This document shows positions 13,724-32,794 of a stretch of DNA of 64,000 nt, piece after piece; within the stretch, counting starts at the first letter, position 1, and each line of letters starts with the position of its first letter. The stretch lies in the NCBI GenBank assembly GCA_937625935.1, contig OW569376.1, positions 372,001-436,000 of the forward strand, written 5' to 3'. The notes beneath the pieces were generated by a model. It was not told the origin of the DNA and made no database searches. It saw nothing but the letters and a program-made list of their open reading frames with translations. Both the position numbers and the translations under genes were made by a program. This stretch comes from Tetramitus jugosus (taxonomy: Eukaryota; Heterolobosea; Eutetramitea; Acrasida; Vahlkampfiidae).

Positions 13724-14112
13724 AGTGGTGGAGAATTAGAGAATCTATTTATAGAAAACGGAGTTTGGTATTTTCTTGTGTTGTTGATCGGAGTGAAGAG
13801 TTGTCTCTTTGCTTCTTGATTGATCAAAGGTTCTTAGTGGTTGTTGTTTATGTGTTTGCTTTTTGTTTGTTGCGCAGCCAAGGGAAAAATGGAGAAATTG
13901 TTTTTGTGATTTTATCCTTGTTCCTTTGTCTCTATTTTTTGTTCTTGTTCGGTGGATGAGAACTGTTCATGTGAACAGACAGGACAAGTATCTGAAAACA
14001 GTGACGTCGGTTAGATTCCTAAAGGATGGTATCTCCTCTTTGAGTTTTGCGTAGTCTTTGAATATGCTACAGTGGAGTTGGTTCATTTACAGTATTTTTG
14101 ATAACGTTGAAC
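13724..14112. other. intergenic region
   Basis: This is promoter and leader of the CDP-diacylglycerol synthase gene on the left, and the 3' flank of the first seven-TM gene on the right. It is T-rich and G-rich on the plus strand, with no credible ORF. The last ~30 bases begin the segment shared with the second seven-TM copy. Confidence 0.4.
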
Positions 14113-15693
14113 TTAAACTTCTATCACTTGTTCATCAAGTGCTTCTTGTTCGAACTGTACTTGCATTTGAGGAGTGGTTGCTTCCTCTGTTTCTGTCACT
14201 TGAAATTCTTCCTTCTTTTCTTCTGTCAATTGTACTTCTTGTTGTTGTGTATTATCTTCTGGGGATGAGAAATCTGAAGGTTCAGGAGACATTGGTGTTG
14301 CTCCAATCTGAGTCAAGTCAACCACAACCTTGTTTGTCAACAACTTTGAAGGAGTAATGTCACCACTTTCAATCACCATGCTGGATGATCCATCCATCTC
14401 CTTGAATTCTGCTGCTGTCACTCCAGCATCTTCCAGAATTCCACCTTCCACCAATTCTGTTGCTTCGCTGGTGTCTGTGTTGTATTGACGCATGTTGATG
14501 ATTGGATCCCAAAGTTTTGCAATCTTGAAAGGCCAGTACAAAACAATGACGGCACCAATACCGAAGAGATCAGAGGTTGATCTGGTCAAAATTGTCCAAG
14601 TGTAAACAGGTAAGTTGACAAACACTAGAACCAAACCTACTGTACGAATATTGACTGCAATGAGCAACAAAAACAGAGCACATGCCGATTTGATCATGGC
14701 TGATCGTTGTCTGTTCATAACAGCGTCATCAGAAGCCATTCCTTGTTTCTGATTGAAAACGCTGCTCTTATGGAGCATATATACAACACGAATGCCCAAT
14801 GCCACAGCGACCATGGTCAGGGCAATTGTCGCAGTTGCGAGTCCGAGTGCACCACCTCTGTAGAATGCAAAGAACACTTTCACATTCTTCACAACTGCAA
14901 TACCTACCATCTGAAAGAGGGCAGCAGTGAAAACAACGATCGCAGCGAACAAAGTAATCAGCGAAATAAGGACATAAACCACAATTCTCAACACCTTTTC
15001 AGTTTGGACTGAACCCTTGTACCATAGAAACGAAATTCTCATCCAAACCACAATCAACATGGAGAGGAGAATTTCATAGTGAATGTGGCACGACATGTGA
15101 ATCAGGTTAGCCACACGTACAATGAACCTTCGAGGACCAGTGGGATATGGAGAACCTGCAATAGTCATTATTTGAGCAATGATACGAATTACGATGTAGA
15201 TACAAGCCAAGAACAATGTCCAATTGAGCAGGGCTCTCGTTCTAAACCTTTCCAACGCTTTGTTGTTCTTAGCTTTGGTGTTCTTCTTTCTTGTCTGGTT
15301 ATGGGCTGTACTCTTGTTATTGCTCTTTGGAGCCTTCGTGTTGTTGTCATTCTGAGTGTCAACTTGTTCTGAATCATCTCTGTCACTGTCCAACCACTTG
15401 GAGAACCAAGCACAGCAAGCATAAACAAAATTCATTTTGCTCTTGTTGCCCTTGTTGGGAAGAAAGATGATGAAACTTCGATTGCCAACAAATGCCACGA
15501 CTAACAGAACAAACAAGAAAAGGTCGATGCATGTGCTCACGCCATCGATAATCATGTTGATTGCAACATCTTTCTTGAGATGACCAATCATTGGGACCTT
15601 GGAAGAAGTGGTGTTTGTTGCAACAGCAGCCAACAGTGATTCAAAGTGAGATAGTTCCCCAAAAGAGATTCCTTGAAAGTAGTTCATTTGCAT
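14102..15693 (-). repeat. direct duplication (pair of 19310-20913)
   Basis: The seven-TM coding sequence occurs twice in the same orientation about 5.2 kb apart. Identity begins around the stop codon and ends just inside the start codon, so the shared unit is almost exactly the coding region; promoters and 5' leaders differ. A roughly 230-base block near 14350-14600 matches 19570-19815 with almost no change, as does 15355-15495 against 20575-20715. The middle (14840-14950 against 20050-20160) is clearly diverged. Confidence 0.85.
14113..15693 (-). CDS. seven-transmembrane protein, copy A of tandem pair
   Basis: The 526-residue protein starts MQMNYFQGISFGELSHFESL. Seven hydrophobic helices are visible at roughly residues 47-70, 150-175, 195-222, 232-257, 273-297, 322-350 and 362-382, separated by a polar insert after the first helix (Asp, Asn, Ser, Lys-rich, about 95-145). 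A ~130-residue acidic Ser/Thr/Gln-rich tail follows. The arrangement (short N-terminus, 7 TM, long cytosolic tail with many potential phosphosites) fits a receptor-like or THH1/TOM1-like membrane protein, but no family-diagnostic motif is seen. It shares most of its sequence with the gene at 19321-20913; differences concentrate in the insert and the fourth helix region. Confidence 0.85.
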   Translation of the reverse strand: MQMNYFQGISFGELSHFESLLAAVATNTTSSKVPMIGHLKKDVAINMIIDGVSTCIDLFLFVLLVVAFVGNRSFIIFLPNKGNKSKMNFVYACCAWFSKWLDSDRDDSEQVDTQNDNNTKAPKSNNKSTAHNQTRKKNTKAKNNKALERFRTRALLNWTLFLACIYIVIRIIAQIMTIAGSPYPTGPRRFIVRVANLIHMSCHIHYEILLSMLIVVWMRISFLWYKGSVQTEKVLRIVVYVLISLITLFAAIVVFTAALFQMVGIAVVKNVKVFFAFYRGGALGLATATIALTMVAVALGIRVVYMLHKSSVFNQKQGMASDDAVMNRQRSAMIKSACALFLLLIAVNIRTVGLVLVFVNLPVYTWTILTRSTSDLFGIGAVIVLYWPFKIAKLWDPIINMRQYNTDTSEATELVEGGILEDAGVTAAEFKEMDGSSSMVIESGDITPSKLLTNKVVVDLTQIGATPMSPEPSDFSSPEDNTQQQEVQLTEEKKEEFQVTETEEATTPQMQVQFEQEALDEQVIEV

Positions 15694-16674
15694 TAGTTTG
15701 TTTTGTTTGTTGTTCGTTAAGTGTGTCTGTTTTGTAGCACTCCATCCCTTCTAAAAAGTTCTCAGTTAAAAGCGTGGAAGGGATTCTACCAGAACTGATG
15801 TTGAAGTTTTGAATTTCCCAAGCTAAGGGTCTGTGTGAACTGGACTCTCATTCCAACAGGTGATCAGACAAGTTCACAGTGAGAATTTGGATAAATAGTT
15901 CACAACAGCTGATTTCCCTACCGCGAGTTTGACCCCTTGAGACCAAAAAAGTATTCTTTCACGAATTTGGGATACACCTTTCGGGAATGAAGTGATGCGT
16001 GACGAGTAGAGTTGCACTGGGGTGTCACTTAACATGGTTACTGGATCCAACATGCATTGTCCAGAATTATCTTGTCGGCAACTCACTGTCAGGTGATGTT
16101 GTGTGCACTGATTTATGCGTCAAATGACCAGCAGCGATTCGCGTTCACATGTCGATGCCGGAGCTCTGATGAGTGGTGTGAATGCAAGAGTGAATGGTTG
16201 ATGATGGTTTTTCCACAAATGCGCTTGATGATATGGAATTACACTACGCTATCCAAACAACCATATTTTTTGAAGGACCCTAGAATATTCTAGTTCGAGT
16301 CGGTTCGATGGTCTAGGCCATAGCCATGGTTCCTGCTTCAACAATCTGGAAGATACACCCAAAACTCACAGGCCACCACTGATCAAAAGGGAATTTTCAT
16401 GAGAAGATCGTTCGGTCAAATGAATTATTATTTTCTGGTCTTCAATGAAGTGTTTTGGTTCTTTTCTCTCCCGTCAACAATTTTGGACTGGTGATCTGAT
16501 ACCCTGAATGGTGTTTCGCCCGATGGGATGTTGTCATCACAGATTGTAAAGTTGACTCTGGGGACCCAGGATATTCCGTCACTGCGGTGGACCAACCCTT
16601 AAAAAGCAGAGGTATCCAGGCCAACAAATTCTATTCAACCATCCACAAACCAAATAACTACACATACCACAATC
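15694..16674. other. intergenic region with promoter of the secreted peptide gene
   Basis: About 980 bases. The left part is promoter and leader of seven-TM copy A; an interrupted inverted repeat (CATCCCTTC ... GAAGGGAT) lies near 15747-15792. The right part ends with a TATA-like CTTAAAAAGC at about 16597-16606, some 70 bases before the peptide ATG, followed by a short AC-rich leader. Frames here lack ATG starts or sensible composition. Confidence 0.4.
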
Positions 16675-17022
16675 ATGAGAATCATTTCTGTTCTATTGCT
16701 TATCGCTCTTTTGGCTACTGTTGTTCTGTGCGCCAGACCAACTGACTTGAAGTTGACTAGACCAGTCATCAAGAAGTGGGTTCAACGTCCATTGACCAGA
16801 CCAGCTCAACCAAGACTCCCAATCTCTGACAGAAAGATCAGAAATCTCAAGAAGGCTGTTGCTGCTCAAGAAGAAGCTTTGGCTGACTTGAAGTTCGACC
16901 TCTCCTGCACCTACCTCTGCAACACCTGGTACTTGTGCCATGCTAAGGGAAGCTGGGGTGGAAACACTTCTGGATGCTCCAAGCCTTCTGGCTGTGTCTG
17001 CAACAAGTTCGCCTGGCAATAG
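16675..17022 (+). CDS. small secreted Pro/Arg-rich plus six-cysteine peptide precursor
   Basis: The 115-residue product has a clear signal peptide (MRIISVLLLIALLATVVLCA), then a cationic, proline-spaced segment (about 21-52, with RP/LTRP repeats), a short helical charged spacer (KKAVAAQEEALADLKF), and a C-terminal cysteine domain with six Cys in the order C-x3-C-x5-C-x12-C-x5-C-x-C, rich in Gly, Trp and aromatics. The end CxC and the Gly-Cys before it resemble defensin-like or knottin folds, though spacing differs from the standard insect-defensin pattern. Codon use is strikingly uniform (AAG for Lys, CTC/TTG for Leu, AAC for Asn), suggesting very high expression. Antimicrobial or surface-adhesive roles are plausible; neither is shown. 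It sits alone between the duplicated seven-TM genes. Confidence 0.85.
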   Translation: MRIISVLLLIALLATVVLCARPTDLKLTRPVIKKWVQRPLTRPAQPRLPISDRKIRNLKKAVAAQEEALADLKFDLSCTYLCNTWYLCHAKGSWGGNTSGCSKPSGCVCNKFAWQ

Positions 17023-17281
17023 TAAATTTAGTCAATAAAAGCACCAAATTAACCAACCACTCCTCATGGCTCCATTCTTTTTCTGCTGAACTTGTCACAT
17101 GCGTTTTTTGTGATTTGTCAATTATTAATTCCTAGCCAAAACTAACTAACAATCGTGGTAAGTCCCATTGATGTTGCTAATTGGTTGTCAATAGTCAACC
17201 AGAACTGTTTCACAGGCGAGTTGACATCCTTATGGATATTTCCTGGTCAAACAACAACAAGACATATTACCGAACTGCAAC

Positions 17282-18212
17282 ATGAAATGTGAGAGGTGCA
17301 GATTTGGTTGGTGCCTTCCCACTGGCGATTCTAAACTACTCCGGCGCAGTGGGGTTCTTAAGAACCATCAGCTTTTTGATGAGGATGGAATCATGAAAAT
17401 GCCATCCGAAAAAGCGAAGTAAAAGATGACAGGTATTGGCCAAAAAAAGGACACGAGGATTCGCGCCCACACGGAACTGCTGGTAAATCATGTGATGAAA
17501 AGTGGTTTTCTCAAAGAACCGTGTAACAAAAGGTCTCGGTGTCTGTCAGTGGTAGAGAGCTTGTTGAGGATAGCATCAGGAAGGAATTGACGGACCACTT
17601 CTCAAGCAGTAGTAGTGAAATCATCTCAAAGTCGCGGGATGGTGGTTGGAAGCAGCGCTGCAGCAAGACAAGGAGTGAAACAACCTTCTCAAGTGTCCAT
17701 TTGGTCTGAATAGAAAGGAATTGTGGTTCTATCATCAGGTGAGAAGTGGTACTCTCCCTACAAGGACTGGCGCTCGACATCTGTGTAATCGGGGATCGAT
17801 GTCACTCACACACTGTTGTAAAGCTCCAGAAACCATCGTGCATCTGCGAACTTGAAAGGATGGTAAGATGCAAGTTGGTTGAAGAGCTGAAGGTGAAACT
17901 GGACAAGCTGAGTCTGCCAGATTCTGTCAAGGTCTCTGTACGGTTCGAGGATGTGTTGTACGAAGTGGAAATATACAACCACGAAAAGTGAAGCGAATTC
18001 CTGAAGGAACATTGGAGGGATTGATGGGATAGGAAGGAGACTTCAAGGAGGAATTTCTGGACGAAATGAAGCTCTCAGGTAAGAAGAGAAGTGAAGAAGA
18101 GAAAAAGATAAGGAGAGTCATTGACTCAATCAAGAGGTCGTGCATCAAGACACAATACAAGATGTACATTAACTCTGTCGCGGAGAGGAGTAAAACACTG
18201 CTCGTCACCTAA
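17282..18212 (+). pseudogene. decayed coding region, family not recognised
   Basis: Consecutive plus-strand stretches look coding but are broken. 17282-17422 reads from ATG with a Cys cluster (MKCERCRFGWC) and GVLKNHQLFDEDGIMKMP. A shifted frame continues from 17402 (KSEVKDDRYWPKKGHEDSRP) to a TAA at 17524, then in the same frame to TGAs at about 17708 and 17738. The next open piece ends at 17991 with LVEELKVKLDKLSLPDSVKV and VRFEDVLYEVEIYNHEK. A further shifted piece at 18033-18212 reads EEFLDEMKLSGKKRSEEEKK. Charged, biased composition and hand-over between frames suggest one or more dead genes rather than chance ORFs. Very short introns cannot be excluded, because a nearby gene seems to have them. 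Confidence 0.45.
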
Positions 18213-18250
18213 CAGTGCCGAGCGGAATCATGACTCACAGTGGTGTATAG

Positions 18251-18409
18251 AATAAAGTGGCAACACTAGTTGTATGGAAAAAAATTGGCATTGGTGTATT
18301 GTGCAAATCAAAGTCCCTATCGAGAAGATTCCCTAAAAGAAAAGGAACGAGACAGGGAGTCTCCCTTTCACCCATCATGTACGTTGACAAACAGGTGGAA
18401 GGATATTAG
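18251..18409 (+). mobile_element. reverse-transcriptase-like fragment (retroelement relic)
   Basis: One open frame between in-frame stops (TAG at 18248, TAG at 18407) reads WKKIGIGVLCKSKSLSRRFP then KRKGTRQGVSLSPIMY. The core GTRQG-x2-LSP is the conserved motif in front of the catalytic YADD box of non-LTR retrotransposon and group II-type reverse transcriptases, and the preceding basic FPxKR context also fits. Only about 50 residues remain; the YADD box is absent and the frame runs straight into an unrelated Nudix-like fragment, so this is a truncated relic. Confidence 0.5.
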
Positions 18410-18553
18410 AGGATGTACCAAAGACTGTCTAGGAATGCGGTAAATGTTGACGATCGCATGTATGGATTCCCTGGAGGTTTAATCGATTCGGGTGAGACTG
18501 TGGAGGAAGCTGCACGAAGGGAGCTCTTGGAAGAGACGGTCTGTAGATATTGA
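18410..18553 (+). pseudogene. orphan Nudix-box fragment
   Basis: The same frame after the TAG at 18407 gives about 47 residues containing FPGGLIDSGETVEEAARREL then LEETV. This matches the Nudix box G-x5-E-x7-RE-U-x-EE up to the last glycine, which is Val here. It stops seven residues later at TGA (18551) with no upstream or downstream Nudix fold, so it is a fragment of a former hydrolase gene. It is unrelated in detail to the intact Nudix gene at 41096-41545. Confidence 0.55.
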
Positions 18554-19320
18554 CCGAGCAGCCAAATCAATGTCAGAGTTCTATCGTCCCTTCGCATGTC
18601 TATGCACCCAATTGAGCGATGTTCGGCAATTTGAAGAGGAAGGAACACACGACATAGAGGTAGATGGTACAGTTGTCCAGGCACGAAACAGTGGTCAAGT
18701 GTTCAGAACTCTGGGTCTCTTCGCCAACATGAAGGATCAGTTTGTATTGAAAAAAAACGGCACAAATCAAGAGAGAACAGCAGAGTGGATGAATATTAAC
18801 TCTGGTTATTACAGAGGGCCGCAAGTAACAGCGGATCCGACTTCAGTTTCATCAAGTACCACATGTCGACCGGAAACTGGAGCGGTTCCAAGCACAAATC
18901 CGAAGTGGGAAGTTACACACTTAGGACGTTGTGCATTTTCTTTACAAAACAGCCAGCATGCCGAAGCAGTGTGTCTGGTGTCATATCGAAACGGAGAGTG
19001 TCCTACACTGTCTGAACCGCTGCCCAAGAGCAGTCAAAATGACAGTAGGAATGAGTTAGTAGATAGAGTTAGAAGTAGCACGAGAGGACCACATTGGCAT
19101 CAGAGTAGAATAGGAATCAGTGTAGTGAGGTACAGAGACAACTCTCCAATCAAGGACCACTCGTTCCAGTCTAGCATCTTTCCAAGTAGGACGAAGAATG
19201 TCCTTTTGCCAGTTTGTCAACAACACGAAAAAGTCTGTTGATATCTGGTTTGATAACCGGCAATGCAGGATGAAGTAAATTGTTCGTTTGTTCCTTTACA
19301 GTATGTTGATCACTTTGAAC
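18554..19320. other. spacer between relics and seven-TM copy B
   Basis: A 249-codon plus-strand frame (18492-19241) crosses this stretch but begins at GTG, overlaps the Nudix fragment in another frame and has irregular composition, so I do not call it a gene. Part of it (EEEGTHDIEVDGTVVQAR and following) could be another relic. Copy B's 3' flank begins near 19295. Confidence 0.35.
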
Positions 19321-20913
19321 TTAGACTTCGATCACTTGTTCATCAAGTGCTTCCTGTTCGAACTGTACTTGCATTTGAGGAGTGGTTGCTTCCTCTGTTT
19401 CTGTCACTTGAATTTCTTCCTTCTTTTCTTCTGTCAATTGTACTTCTTGTTGTTGTGTAGTGTCTTCTGGGGATGAGAAATCTGAAGGTTCAGGGGACAT
19501 TGGTGTTGCTCCAATCTGAGTCAAGTCAACCACAACTGCCTTGTTTGTCAACAGTTTTGAAGGAGTAATGTCACCACTTTCAATCACCATGCTGGATGAT
19601 CCATCCATCTCCTTGAATTCTGCTGCTGTCACTCCAGCATCTTCCAGAATTCCACCTTCCACCAATTCTGTTGCTTCGCTGGTGTCTGTGTTGTATTGAC
19701 GCATGTTGATGATTGGATCCCAAAGTTTTGCAATCTTGAAAGGCCAGTACAAAACAATGACGGCACCAATACCGAAGAGATCAGAGGTTGATCTGGTCAA
19801 AATTGTCCAAGTGTAAACTGGCAACTTGGCAAACACAAGAGCCAAACCTACTGTACGAATATTGACTGCAATGAGCAACAAAAACAGAGCACATGCCGAT
19901 TTGATCATGGCTGATCGTTGTCTGCTTATAACAGCGTCGTCAGAAGCCATTCCTTGTTTCTTATTGAAAACGCTGCTCTTATGGAGCATATACACAACAC
20001 GAATGCCCAATGCCACAGCAACCAGTGTCAAAGCAATTGTAGAAGCTGCGAATCCGAGTGCACCACCTCTGTAGAATGCGGTGTACACCTTTGGGTTCTT
20101 CACAACTTCAGGTCCCAACATCTGAACGAGAACTGCACTATATACGCTGCACGCAGCGAACAAAGTAATCAGCGAAATAAGGACATAAACCACAATTCTC
20201 AACACCTTTTCAGTCTGGACTGAACCCTTGTACCATAGAAACGAAATTCTCATCCAAACCACGATCAACATGGAAAGAAGAACTTGATAGTGAACATAGC
20301 AAGACATGTGAATCAGGTTAGCCACACGTACAATGAACCTTCGAGGGCCGATAGGATACGGAGAGCCAGAAATGGTCAAAATTTGAGCAATGATACGGAA
20401 CACAATGTAGACACAAGCCAAGAAAAGAGTCCAATTGAGCAACGCCCTCGTTCGATACTTCTCCAATGCTTTGCTGTTCTTGGTCTTGTTGCTCTTTTTT
20501 GGCCGGTTGTGCCCTGTACTCTTGCTATTGCTCTTGCTCTTGCCCTTAGTACCCTTCGTGTTGTTGTCATTCTGAGTGTCAACTTGTTCTGAATCATCTC
20601 TGTCACTGTCCAACCACTTGGAGAACCAAGCACAGCAAGCATAAACAAAATTCATTTTGCTCTTGTTGCCCTTGTTGGGAAGAAAGATGATGAAACTTCG
20701 ATTGCCAACAAATGACACAACCAACAGAACAAGTAGGATGAGATCGATGCATGTGCTCACGCCATCGATAATCATGTTGATGGCAACATCTTTCTTGAGA
20801 TGACCAATCATTGGGACCTTGGAAGAAGTGGTGTTTGTCGCAACAGCAGCCAACAGTGATTCAAAGTGAGATAGTTCCCCAAAAGAGATTCCTTGAAGGC
20901 AGTTAATAAGCAT
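19321..20913 (-). CDS. seven-transmembrane protein, copy B of tandem pair
   Basis: The 530-residue paralogue of the gene at 14113-15693 has the same start context (LQGISFGELSHFESLLAAVA), seven helices and acidic tail. It differs by a few extra residues in the polar insert after helix 1 (GKSKSNSKSTGHN), a changed segment between helices 4 and 5 (CSVYSAVLVQMLGPEVVKNP against IVVFTAALFQMVGIAVVKNV in copy A) and one added residue in the tail (NKAVVVD). The open frame and mostly conservative changes indicate that both copies are functional. Promoters are unrelated, so the two may be expressed under different conditions. Confidence 0.85.
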   Translation of the reverse strand: MLINCLQGISFGELSHFESLLAAVATNTTSSKVPMIGHLKKDVAINMIIDGVSTCIDLILLVLLVVSFVGNRSFIIFLPNKGNKSKMNFVYACCAWFSKWLDSDRDDSEQVDTQNDNNTKGTKGKSKSNSKSTGHNRPKKSNKTKNSKALEKYRTRALLNWTLFLACVYIVFRIIAQILTISGSPYPIGPRRFIVRVANLIHMSCYVHYQVLLSMLIVVWMRISFLWYKGSVQTEKVLRIVVYVLISLITLFAACSVYSAVLVQMLGPEVVKNPKVYTAFYRGGALGFAASTIALTLVAVALGIRVVYMLHKSSVFNKKQGMASDDAVISRQRSAMIKSACALFLLLIAVNIRTVGLALVFAKLPVYTWTILTRSTSDLFGIGAVIVLYWPFKIAKLWDPIINMRQYNTDTSEATELVEGGILEDAGVTAAEFKEMDGSSSMVIESGDITPSKLLTNKAVVVDLTQIGATPMSPEPSDFSSPEDTTQQQEVQLTEEKKEEIQVTETEEATTPQMQVQFEQEALDEQVIEV

Positions 20914-27760: not shown

Positions 27761-29026
27761 ATGCAACACCCATTGCTCACAGAAGATATGGGTGATGATC
27801 CATCTGTGAACACAGAGTACAACATTAACAATGGGAACGGTGGTGAACATCCTCTGTATGGGAAGCACAAGCCAACATCATCTTCCTTTTCAACTGTTCT
27901 CTATGTCGTTTCACTTGTAGTCATTGCACTGTTGCTTGTGATTCTCACGGTTCTTGCTGTGAAATATTATCAACTTTCCCGCCATAATGATGTTATTCCG
28001 AAGCCCGTTACCAAGTTTACGCTTCTCAAGCCAAAAAAATTGGGCGGCAAGAATGGCGCCGCCATTACCAACTTGAAAATAGGATTCTTTTCTCCGGCTT
28101 CCTCTCTCGTCGATAGTGTGAGCAACATTACAGCTTACAAGGAACGAGTGGTCTCTGAGTTTCAAGCTCAATTCGGCGCACAAGTCTTCTTTTCGGCCAA
28201 CTCGTTTGACAAGAATGGAATTTTGTCTGGAACGGATGAACAGCGCGTTCAAGACATTCATAGCTTATCTAGTGACTCTTCTGTGCATGCACTGATTGCA
28301 AATAGAGGTGGTTGGGGCTGTAATCGAATCATTGATCAGCTCGATTATGATATAATAGTCAACTCCAATCATCACAAGGTCATCATGGGCTATAGTGACT
28401 TGACTGGTTGTTTGAATGCCATTTTTTTTAGAACTGGCTTAATTACGTTCCATGGCCCCATGGGCGTCAATTCATTTGTCAATACGTGGAACTCGGATGT
28501 CACTTACAATTTGAACACAATGTACATGCAGAAACTGTTGTTCAAGAATGAGAAAGTATTGTTTGAGAATCCTCCTAATGGTGCCACAGTAACTGTACTC
28601 AGAGGAGGAAAGGCCACTGGTCGTCTCGTTGGTGGAAACTTGTCAGTGTTTGCTGGCATGATTGGATCTAATCATTTGCCACCAAAATCAAAGATTAATC
28701 TAGCTTGGGAACAAGTCATCTTGTTCTTTGAGGATATTAATGAGGATGTGATGAGAATGGATCGATTTATGACACAGTTGGAAACGAGTGGTATTCTGAG
28801 TCGTGTCGCTGGATTTATCTTTGGTACATGCAATGATTGTAAGAGTTATGCAGGAACTCAAACATTACAACAAGTGATCAAGGACCATGTAAAGAATCAA
28901 CCTGCAGTCATGGGATTACAAATTGGTCATGATGGTCAACAATTTACGCTTCCTATTGGAGCTCAGGTGGAACTCAACGCAGACCTAGGTACCATTCAAA
29001 TGTTGGAAACTGCACTAGCGGATTGA
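27761..29026 (+). CDS. membrane-anchored LD-carboxypeptidase (peptidase S66)
   Basis: S66 enzymes cut the bond between an L- and a D-amino acid in peptidoglycan stem peptides. The 421-residue protein has a cytosolic N-terminus (1-45), one strong membrane helix (about 46-68, VLYVVSLVVIALLLVILTVL) and a lumenal or outer S66 domain (from ~105). The catalytic serine is in GYSDLTG (Ser212). The expected glutamate is in LFFEDINE (Glu324) and the histidine in GHDGQQFTLPIG (His390), so all three active-site residues are present. The family is mainly bacterial and soluble; a type II anchor is unusual and would place the enzyme in a phagolysosome or at the surface, fitting digestion of bacterial walls. 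Codon use looks like that of its neighbours, so any transfer was not recent. Confidence 0.88.
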   Translation: MQHPLLTEDMGDDPSVNTEYNINNGNGGEHPLYGKHKPTSSSFSTVLYVVSLVVIALLLVILTVLAVKYYQLSRHNDVIPKPVTKFTLLKPKKLGGKNGAAITNLKIGFFSPASSLVDSVSNITAYKERVVSEFQAQFGAQVFFSANSFDKNGILSGTDEQRVQDIHSLSSDSSVHALIANRGGWGCNRIIDQLDYDIIVNSNHHKVIMGYSDLTGCLNAIFFRTGLITFHGPMGVNSFVNTWNSDVTYNLNTMYMQKLLFKNEKVLFENPPNGATVTVLRGGKATGRLVGGNLSVFAGMIGSNHLPPKSKINLAWEQVILFFEDINEDVMRMDRFMTQLETSGILSRVAGFIFGTCNDCKSYAGTQTLQQVIKDHVKNQPAVMGLQIGHDGQQFTLPIGAQVELNADLGTIQMLETALAD

Positions 29027-31882: not shown

Positions 31883-32794
31883 ATGATGTCCCAAGTATTG
31901 TTATTTGTCTGTTGTTTGCTATTCCTTCTTCATTGTCTCCATGGTTTGACTGAAACTACTTCTCTGATGACAATGCCAGATCTGACAAATACTACTGAAC
32001 CAAGGTCTGTAAAATCATGCAGTTGTGTGGCTTGCATGTGCCCAGGAAGTACTTCTGACTGTCCCATTACCATTTCAGACTACGCGTCAACTTCACAACG
32101 CTGTGGTGAGGGATCTAGGGTGAGAATAGACACCTTAGGATCTGAATCAACAGATGGGAGTGCCTATCGAGTATTCACAGTAGATCAGGAGAATTTCAAT
32201 TTGTTCCAGAGAGGTCAAAGCTTTAGTTACTTCACTTCTCTATCTACTCCTTCAAGTGTTTCTTGCTTTATTGCTTCGTCGTTTATTGTTGTAGATCCAG
32301 CCTCTGTTTATGTCATTTTTCAGTGCATGAATTCAATTTACAATTGTCCAGTGAAGTATGATCTTTCAGGATCATGTGTCGCAGGAAAGGCCACAACTGC
32401 CGAGGTTCTAACTTCTTCTGCTTCCGTACAGAAGAATCAATTGTTTTCTGTCAGTGTGGTACTAAAGGACTCAAGCGGTAGAGAAGATATTTATTCTGAG
32501 GGAGTTGTGACTCTGAGCAAGAAAATTGGCCCTGGCTCTCTATTCGGAAGTACCACCGCAACAGTTAATAGTGGAGTAGCACAATTCTCTGGAATGTCCT
32601 TCGACATGGAAGGTACCTATTCATTGGTGGCTACATTTGGTTCCCAAGTTTCAGGCGACAGCTCAGCCATCAATGTCCAAAAGAAACCCGTGCCACCGCC
32701 ATCACCACCATTTCCACCAGTGGTGAACACAGGTATCATCTTTGCTCCGGCAATCTGGGTCATGCTCTTGTGTTTCATTCTCCATTTCTTGTGA
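31883..32794 (+). CDS. secreted or GPI-anchored cysteine-rich surface protein
   Basis: The 303-residue protein has a signal peptide (VLLFVCCLLFLLHCLHGLTE), a cysteine-dense N-terminal part (CSCVACMCPGSTSDC), then a Ser/Val-rich beta-type domain with scattered cysteines, an Ig-like stretch (about 185-265, including SVSVVLKDSSGREDIYSEGV), a proline hinge (KKPVPPPSPPFPPV) and a hydrophobic C-terminal end after a small-residue site, which fits a GPI-attachment signal. No known adhesin family is recognised. It lies directly downstream of another secreted cysteine-rich gene in the same direction, so the two may form a small cluster of surface proteins. Confidence 0.75.
   Translation: MMSQVLLFVCCLLFLLHCLHGLTETTSLMTMPDLTNTTEPRSVKSCSCVACMCPGSTSDCPITISDYASTSQRCGEGSRVRIDTLGSESTDGSAYRVFTVDQENFNLFQRGQSFSYFTSLSTPSSVSCFIASSFIVVDPASVYVIFQCMNSIYNCPVKYDLSGSCVAGKATTAEVLTSSASVQKNQLFSVSVVLKDSSGREDIYSEGVVTLSKKIGPGSLFGSTTATVNSGVAQFSGMSFDMEGTYSLVATFGSQVSGDSSAINVQKKPVPPPSPPFPPVVNTGIIFAPAIWVMLLCFILHFL

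What the first reader, a model, noticed from the sequence alone, without database searches (positions are those of the whole stretch)
16675..17022. Secreted precursor joining a Pro/Arg-rich segment to a six-cysteine domain
Sequence shows a signal peptide, a cationic RP-spaced region, a helical spacer and a compact C-terminal domain with spacing C-x3-C-x5-C-x12-C-x5-C-x-C. Pro/Arg plus Cys-rich layouts are known from penaeidin-type and defensin-like antimicrobial peptides in animals, but the cysteine spacing here fits no standard family I know. The uniform, preferred-codon usage suggests very strong expression. For an amoeba that feeds on bacteria this could be a new effector or a cyst/surface protein.
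Basis: partly seen in the sequence, partly recalled or inferred. Interest (0 to 1): 0.78.

Follow-up and report, generated by a model that had tools for sequence, protein, structure and literature searches.

The report
Amoeba secreted Pro/Arg plus six-cysteine protein
A soil amoeba (probably Tetramitus jugosus) carries two near-identical genes for a small, strongly codon-optimised, positively charged protein, predicted to be secreted, that joins an arginine/proline stretch to a six-cysteine domain matching no family we searched; it would likely bind or damage the bacteria the amoeba eats, but no activity has been tested.

Summary
Window 16675-17022 (+) encodes a 115-residue protein with a predicted signal peptide, a Pro/Arg segment with four RP dipeptides, a predicted helix and a six-cysteine end, C-x3-C-x5-C-x12-C-x5-C-x-C. 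It is a real gene: a second intact copy on another contig is 95% identical, with 16 silent and 6 residue-changing codons, and its codon index (0.67) exceeds all 28 other long ORFs of the window (at most 0.45), inside the range of EF-1alpha, actin and histone genes. The assembly matches Tetramitus jugosus.

No relative outside this genome was found in Pfam, NCBIfam, PDB sequences or 5.8 billion proteins. CS-alpha-beta defensin membership (no cysteine before CxxxC, no GxC) and penaeidin membership (no CC pairs) are not met. Two low-confidence AlphaFold models suggest only a helix.

I favour a cationic, likely helix-oligomerised antibacterial effector of feeding cells (0.4). The main rival is a lineage-specific cyst-wall or surface protein (0.3). 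It is an orphan of a broadly known kind, of moderate interest until secretion and activity are tested.

The parts
16531..17059 (+). Compact unit shared with the second copy on contig C43 (about 145 bp upstream, CDS, about 37 bp after the stop)
   Evidence: blastn of window 14001-20000 against 9.9 kb around the second copy gives one match, 16531-17059, 88.2% over 542 columns
16599..16605 (+). TATA-like TTAAAAA about 70 bases before the ATG; similar sequence in copy 2 (function inferred)
   Evidence: Sequence
16675..16731 (+). Predicted signal peptide, residues 1-19
   Evidence: Hydropathy; no residue change between copies in codons 1-24 despite 8 silent changes
16732..16827 (+). Pro/Arg segment, residues 20-51: four RP, 6 Pro of 32, net charge +6.8 at pH 7
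16828..16902 (+). Predicted helix, residues 52-76, with one heptad register 6 of 8 hydrophobic over residues 52-79
   Evidence: AlphaFold helix 52-93, block pLDDT 82-88 over residues 51-90; heptads
16903..17019 (+). Six-cysteine domain, residues 77-115, C-x3-C-x5-C-x12-C-x5-C-x-C, with 6 aromatic residues
   Evidence: all six cysteines and W85, W94, W114 kept in copy 2
17020..17022 (+). Stop codon TAG
17034..17039 (+). AATAAA, possible polyadenylation signal (ATTAAA at the place in copy 2)
   Evidence: Sequence

Best explanation
The gene encodes a short, strongly codon-optimised cationic protein that is predicted to be secreted and would likely act on the bacteria the amoeba feeds on, in the phagosome or outside the cell. 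Shown: an intact two-copy gene with a clear excess of silent changes, high codon adaptation, a hydrophobic leader, a calculated charge of about +11 on the 96-residue predicted mature form, a Pro/Arg segment and six conserved cysteines. Inferred: signal cleavage gives a mature protein beginning ARPTD or RPTD; residues 52-76 form a helix that may pair as a coiled coil, so that arginine-rich arms are displayed in multiples; the six cysteines form three disulfides that clamp the helix end to a C-terminal hairpin (CxxxC on the helix to CxC at the end, as in CS-alpha-beta folds, with C88-C101 in place of the missing N-terminal bridge); the charged arms bind anionic bacterial surfaces and the disulfide domain resists digestive proteases.
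For: Hydrophobic leader and pI 9.8, charge +10.8 at pH 7 and +12.8 at pH 5. Four RP dipeptides in 30 residues; Pro content 19% of residues 20-51, inside the 14-49% quoted for Pro-rich antimicrobial peptides (PMC11678341, passages). Codon index 0.67-0.70, like saposin-domain (pore-former type) precursors (0.72 and 0.64, but 0.37 for a third) and 12 cathepsin genes (0.45-0.74; 12 of 32 matches fetched), the secretory genes of feeding amoebae. The organism eats bacteria (PMC11106597). Penaeidins show that a Pro-rich arm plus a six-cysteine helical domain is a workable antibacterial design.
Against: No match to any antimicrobial family or fold (from a low-confidence model). No PRP motif. Only two copies and no wider family, whereas antimicrobial genes often diversify (recalled). 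Cysteine domain itself is only weakly cationic (+2.5 and +1.5 in the two copies). No expression or activity data. CxxxC...CxC order has a 5% chance background.
Confidence: 0.4

Rival explanations
1. A lineage-specific cyst-wall or cell-surface structural protein or lectin: a coiled-coil-assembled, disulfide-rich, aromatic-rich domain that would bind wall glycopolymers, with the basic arm holding it to acidic material.
For: [quoted passage not shown] The cysteine domain here has 6 aromatic residues in 39, three Trp kept in both copies. T. jugosus forms cysts. Orphan status fits.
Against: Leo proteins carry two 8-Cys domains; here there is one six-Cys domain. Leo messages are encystment-specific, whereas extreme codon bias is expected of genes used in fast growth (inference). 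No carbohydrate-binding family matched.
Confidence: 0.3
2. A processed secreted signal or a protease inhibitor: the Pro/Arg and helical parts are a pro-region and the 39-residue cysteine domain is the active piece.
For: Prepro-like layout; the dibasic pairs at residues 33-34 and 59-60 could be cut (sequence); 5 of the 6 residue changes between copies lie in the last 17 residues.
Against: The Pro/Arg and helix parts are as conserved as the leader between copies, though probable gene conversion makes this weak evidence. No inhibitor family matched.
Confidence: 0.2
3. A chance open frame or a dying gene.
For: No homologue outside this genome.
Against: Second intact copy, silent-change excess (P = 2e-6), codon index reached by 0 of 10,000 random back-translations.
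Confidence: 0.01

Closest known systems
Penaeidins (shrimp)
   Same: Signal peptide (recalled), N-terminal Pro-rich domain and C-terminal six-cysteine domain with a disulfide-held helix (PMC11678341, passages)
   Different: Penaeidin-1 as listed there has CxC then two CC pairs; here no CC pair, and a 25-residue charged helix lies between the arm and the cysteine domain; no Pfam match
CS-alpha-beta (cis-) defensins of invertebrates, plants, fungi and bacteria
   Same: CxxxC and a terminal CxC, the two motifs called key determinants of the fold (PMC5234102, parts 1 and 2 of 4 read); small, cationic
   Different: No cysteine before CxxxC; an extra one (C88) between CxxxC and the fourth; residue at -2 of C101 is Ser or Ala, not Gly; 58 extra residues before the domain; no fold match
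Leo cyst-wall lectins of Acanthamoeba
   Same: Lineage-specific cysteine domain behind a signal peptide, abundant, some with a basic spacer (PMC6541295, passages)
   Different: Two domains of eight cysteines each and larger; here one of six
Naegleriapores / saposin-like pore formers (name recalled)
   Same: Secretory cysteine-containing effectors of heteroloboseans (recalled); this genome has saposin-domain genes, two of three with a similarly high codon index
   Different: No saposin match in this protein and other spacing

Membership tests
CS-alpha-beta (cis-) defensins | Framework Cys1...Cys2-x3-Cys3...Cys4...Cys5-x-Cys6 (PMC5234102) | tested here: not met
   CxxxC and CxC are present, but no mature cysteine precedes CxxxC; C88 lies after it. 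C19 belongs to the predicted leader.
CS-alpha-beta (cis-) defensins | GxC at the fourth cysteine (PMC5234102 Figure 1 legend; PMC11561630 passages) | tested here: not met
   Residue 99 is Ser in one copy and Ala in the other
CS-alpha-beta (cis-) defensins | Helix plus two-stranded sheet, bridges 1-4, 2-5, 3-6 | tested here: inconclusive
   Model of residues 71-115: helix only, pLDDT 63, Foldseek 0 matches in the PDB; bridges not testable
CS-alpha-beta (cis-) defensins | Sequence profile match | tested here: not met
   No defensin family in Pfam scans of either copy up to E 10; a genome search with Defensin_2 gave two sub-threshold matches elsewhere (E 0.375, 0.771), not these genes
Penaeidins | Pro-rich N-terminal domain plus six-cysteine C-terminal domain | tested here: met
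   Layout only: 6 Pro of 32 residues, then six cysteines
Penaeidins | Paired CC doublets in the cysteine domain, as in the listed penaeidin-1 | tested here: not met
   No adjacent cysteines; sequence listed in PMC11678341
Proline-rich antimicrobial peptides | 14-49% proline with arginine; some have PRP motifs (PMC11678341) | tested here: inconclusive
   Residues 20-51 are 19% Pro with four RP, but no PRP
Leo lectins | Two 8-Cys domains | tested here: not met
   One domain of six cysteines
Saposin-like pore formers | Saposin profile match | tested here: not met
   No saposin family in the scans of either copy
Secreted proteins | Cleavable signal peptide, no other membrane span | tested here: inconclusive
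   Hydropathy peak only at the N-terminus; a prediction, export not shown
Antibacterial effectors | Kills or binds bacteria | not testable with these tools
   Needs expression and assay

The most novel reading that the evidence does not exclude
A new class of protist antibacterial effector: a two-headed protein that joins a Pro/Arg arm, through a coiled coil, to a defensin-like disulfide domain whose third bridge has moved from before to after the helix start (C88-C101 in place of C1-C4), made at actin-like levels by feeding heterolobosean amoebae.
Probability: 0.15. Interest if true: 0.7.

Novelty: new variant of a known kind. Interest (0 to 1): 0.42.

Why it matters
Bacteria-eating amoebae must kill and digest bacteria, yet few of their antibacterial proteins are known beyond saposin-like pore formers and lysozymes (recalled). 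An orphan, cationic, disulfide-rich and strongly codon-optimised protein in a culturable amoeba is a clear test case: it is either a new bactericidal scaffold or an unknown wall or surface component of Heterolobosea.

Tried and rejected
Chance ORF: rejected. Defensin, penaeidin, saposin and Leo-lectin membership: each fails a tested feature (membership test). Structure: two AlphaFold jobs with only two near-identical sequences gave mean pLDDT 68.8 (whole) and 63.3 (residues 71-115), helix but no strands; for the second model Foldseek found 0 PDB chains and the VIA second look therefore had nothing to align. PDB sequence matches (five, best E 0.01 to a NADH dehydrogenase subunit over residues 3-51) are taken as chance matches of leader and low-complexity parts. 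The only Pfam match, Sas10_Utp3 (E 0.21 and 0.22 for the two copies, 12.6 and 12.5 bits against a cut-off of 30), is rejected. Relatives elsewhere: viral contigs 52 pattern matches, none confirmed; prokaryote genomes 20 pattern matches, none confirmed, but only two peptide patterns from the leader/arm region were used; protein collection 32 and 36 candidates, none at E <= 10. That collection holds some Naegleria, Willaertia and Acrasis proteins and unnamed metagenome relatives, but it needs shared 5-residue words, so fast-diverging orthologues could be missed. Wider family in the genome: only the two copies with the cysteine part and with the leader/arm part; one search gave two more matches at E 0.29 and 0.51, whose matched frames do not look like relatives (one search had shown the wrong strand of the first). 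One search's first codon reference held one wrong ORF (L020) and divergent EF-1alpha-like genes; it was replaced by 13 checked genes. One search chose reference ORFs slightly differently and gives 0.695 instead of 0.672. Paper searches: heterolobosean defensin (one vaccine-design paper), Naegleria cysteine-rich antimicrobial peptides (4 papers, 12 of 50 listed), heterolobosean genomes (25 of 29 listed), Tetramitus jugosus (6 papers); by titles and abstract starts none is about this protein; apart from PMC11106597 (part 1 of 3 read) these were seen as listings only.

Full report
What is there. Window 16675-17022 (+) is a complete uninterrupted ORF of 115 codons. It reads as a hydrophobic leader (residues 1-19), a Pro/Arg segment (20-51), a charged stretch predicted helical (52-76) and a compact end with six cysteines at 78, 82, 88, 101, 107 and 109. 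The predicted mature protein has 96 residues, 10.8 kDa, pI 9.8 and charge +10.8 at pH 7. The Pro/Arg stretch has four RP dipeptides, reached by 0.27% of shuffles.

Is it a gene. A second intact copy lies on contig C43, 95% identical and one residue longer, among other neighbour genes. The shared unit is compact: window 16531-17059 matches at 88.2% over 542 columns, and nothing else in window 14001-20000 matches the 9.9 kb fetched around the second copy. Over 345 aligned CDS bases 22 codons differ, 16 silently and 6 not (P = 2e-6 against a simple neutral expectation). In codons 1-24 all 8 changes are silent, so the leader is kept as a protein. The differences are clustered: 1 of 70 codons in 25-94 against 21 of 45 elsewhere (Fisher P = 1e-9), with 149 identical bases in a row. 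The simplest reading is gene conversion of the middle part (inference). The last 17 residues carry 5 of the 6 residue changes, but all six cysteines and W85, W94 and W114 are kept.

Codon use. With 13 reference ORFs (EF-1alpha, actin, histones) the codon adaptation index is 0.672 for the gene and 0.669 for its copy; 28 window ORFs range from 0.206 to 0.446; the reference genes, each left out in turn, from 0.435 to 0.827. Random back-translations reach at most 0.472 in 10,000. For comparison, three saposin-domain loci scored 0.72, 0.37 and 0.64, and 12 fetched cathepsin loci (of 32 matches) 0.45-0.74. The gene is coded like highly expressed genes; that this means expression in growing, feeding cells is inference, and no RNA data were available.

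Organism. The assembly has 26,348,746 bases in 56 contigs. The Tetramitus jugosus assembly paTetJugo1.1 has 26,350,207 bp in 55 scaffolds, chromosomes of 40.5-41.5% G+C, and chromosomes 29, 33, 43 and 49 of 0.48, 0.47, 0.42 and 0.33 Mb (PMC11106597, part 1 of 3 read) against 478,753, 465,303, 419,931 and 329,988 here. I take the window to be from T. [quoted passage not shown] A neighbouring phosphatidate cytidylyltransferase is 44% identical to Acrasis kona, 34% to Willaertia magna, 36% to Naegleria gruberi and 99% to an unnamed metagenome protein.

Relatives. None found outside this genome: Pfam (one match, E 0.21, far under its cut-off), NCBIfam, PDB sequences (best E 0.01, taken as chance), 5.8 billion proteins with one copy and with both, viral contigs, and prokaryote genomes with two peptide patterns. 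The protein collection does hold heterolobosean proteins, so the family is either confined to this lineage or too divergent for a word-based search; it is not known how complete those proteomes are there.

Structure. AlphaFold with two near-identical sequences gives a helix over residues 52-93 (block pLDDT 82-88 over residues 51-90) and an end without strands. One heptad register of residues 52-79 is 6 of 8 hydrophobic, which fits a short coiled coil (inference). CxxxC on a helix and a terminal CxC recall the two key motifs of CS-alpha-beta folds (PMC5234102), with C88 in the place of the missing N-terminal cysteine. This is a hypothesis: the order CxxxC...CxC arises in 5% of random placements of six cysteines, the GxC of defensins is absent, and no fold match was found, from a low-confidence model.

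Mechanism. My preferred reading is a cationic antibacterial effector, helix-oligomerised and disulfide-stabilised, made by feeding cells (0.4). For it: charge, RP arm, leader, and codon use like that of digestive and most pore-former-type secretory genes sampled. Against it: no family match, no PRP motif, a cysteine domain that is itself only weakly cationic (+2.5 and +1.5), only two copies, no functional data. The main rival is a cyst-wall or surface protein (0.3): Acanthamoeba shows that abundant cyst-wall proteins can be lineage-specific cysteine-rich lectins such as Leo (PMC6541295, passages), and the aromatic-rich cysteine domain would suit glycan binding. A processed signal or inhibitor (0.2) remains open.

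Verdict. The finding is real and its description accurate. It is an orphan, predicted-secretory protein of a broadly known kind (small cationic cysteine-rich protein) with a cysteine spacing found in no family searched. It fails tested membership criteria of defensins and penaeidins, though it may work like them. Interest is moderate until expression, localisation and activity are known.

Noticed in passing
14113-15693 (-) and 19321-20913 (-): Tandem pair of 526- and 530-aa genes that look like multi-span membrane proteins, about 5.2 kb apart with 95-97% identical DNA blocks and no Pfam match; the peptide gene lies between them.
   Followed up: partly
   Followed up: partly
27761-29026 (+): LD-carboxypeptidase (Pfam Peptidase_S66, both domains) with a predicted N-terminal membrane anchor, an enzyme family known from bacterial peptidoglycan metabolism (recalled); possibly a horizontally acquired bacteria-digesting enzyme.
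   Followed up: partly
31883-32794 (+): 303-aa predicted secreted protein with a CSCVACMC cysteine cluster near the N-terminus and a hydrophobic C-terminus; no Pfam match.
   Followed up: partly
L042 and L047 (G000:C4 about 639-640 kb; G000:C48 about 21-22 kb): Multi-domain saposin-like precursors with codon index 0.72 and 0.64, candidates for this amoeba's pore-forming effectors.
   Followed up: partly
G000 contigs C12, C20, C23: Five actin loci score identically (486 bits), four of them with the same 375-aa length and the same first 50 residues printed: a multi-copy actin family.
   Followed up: no
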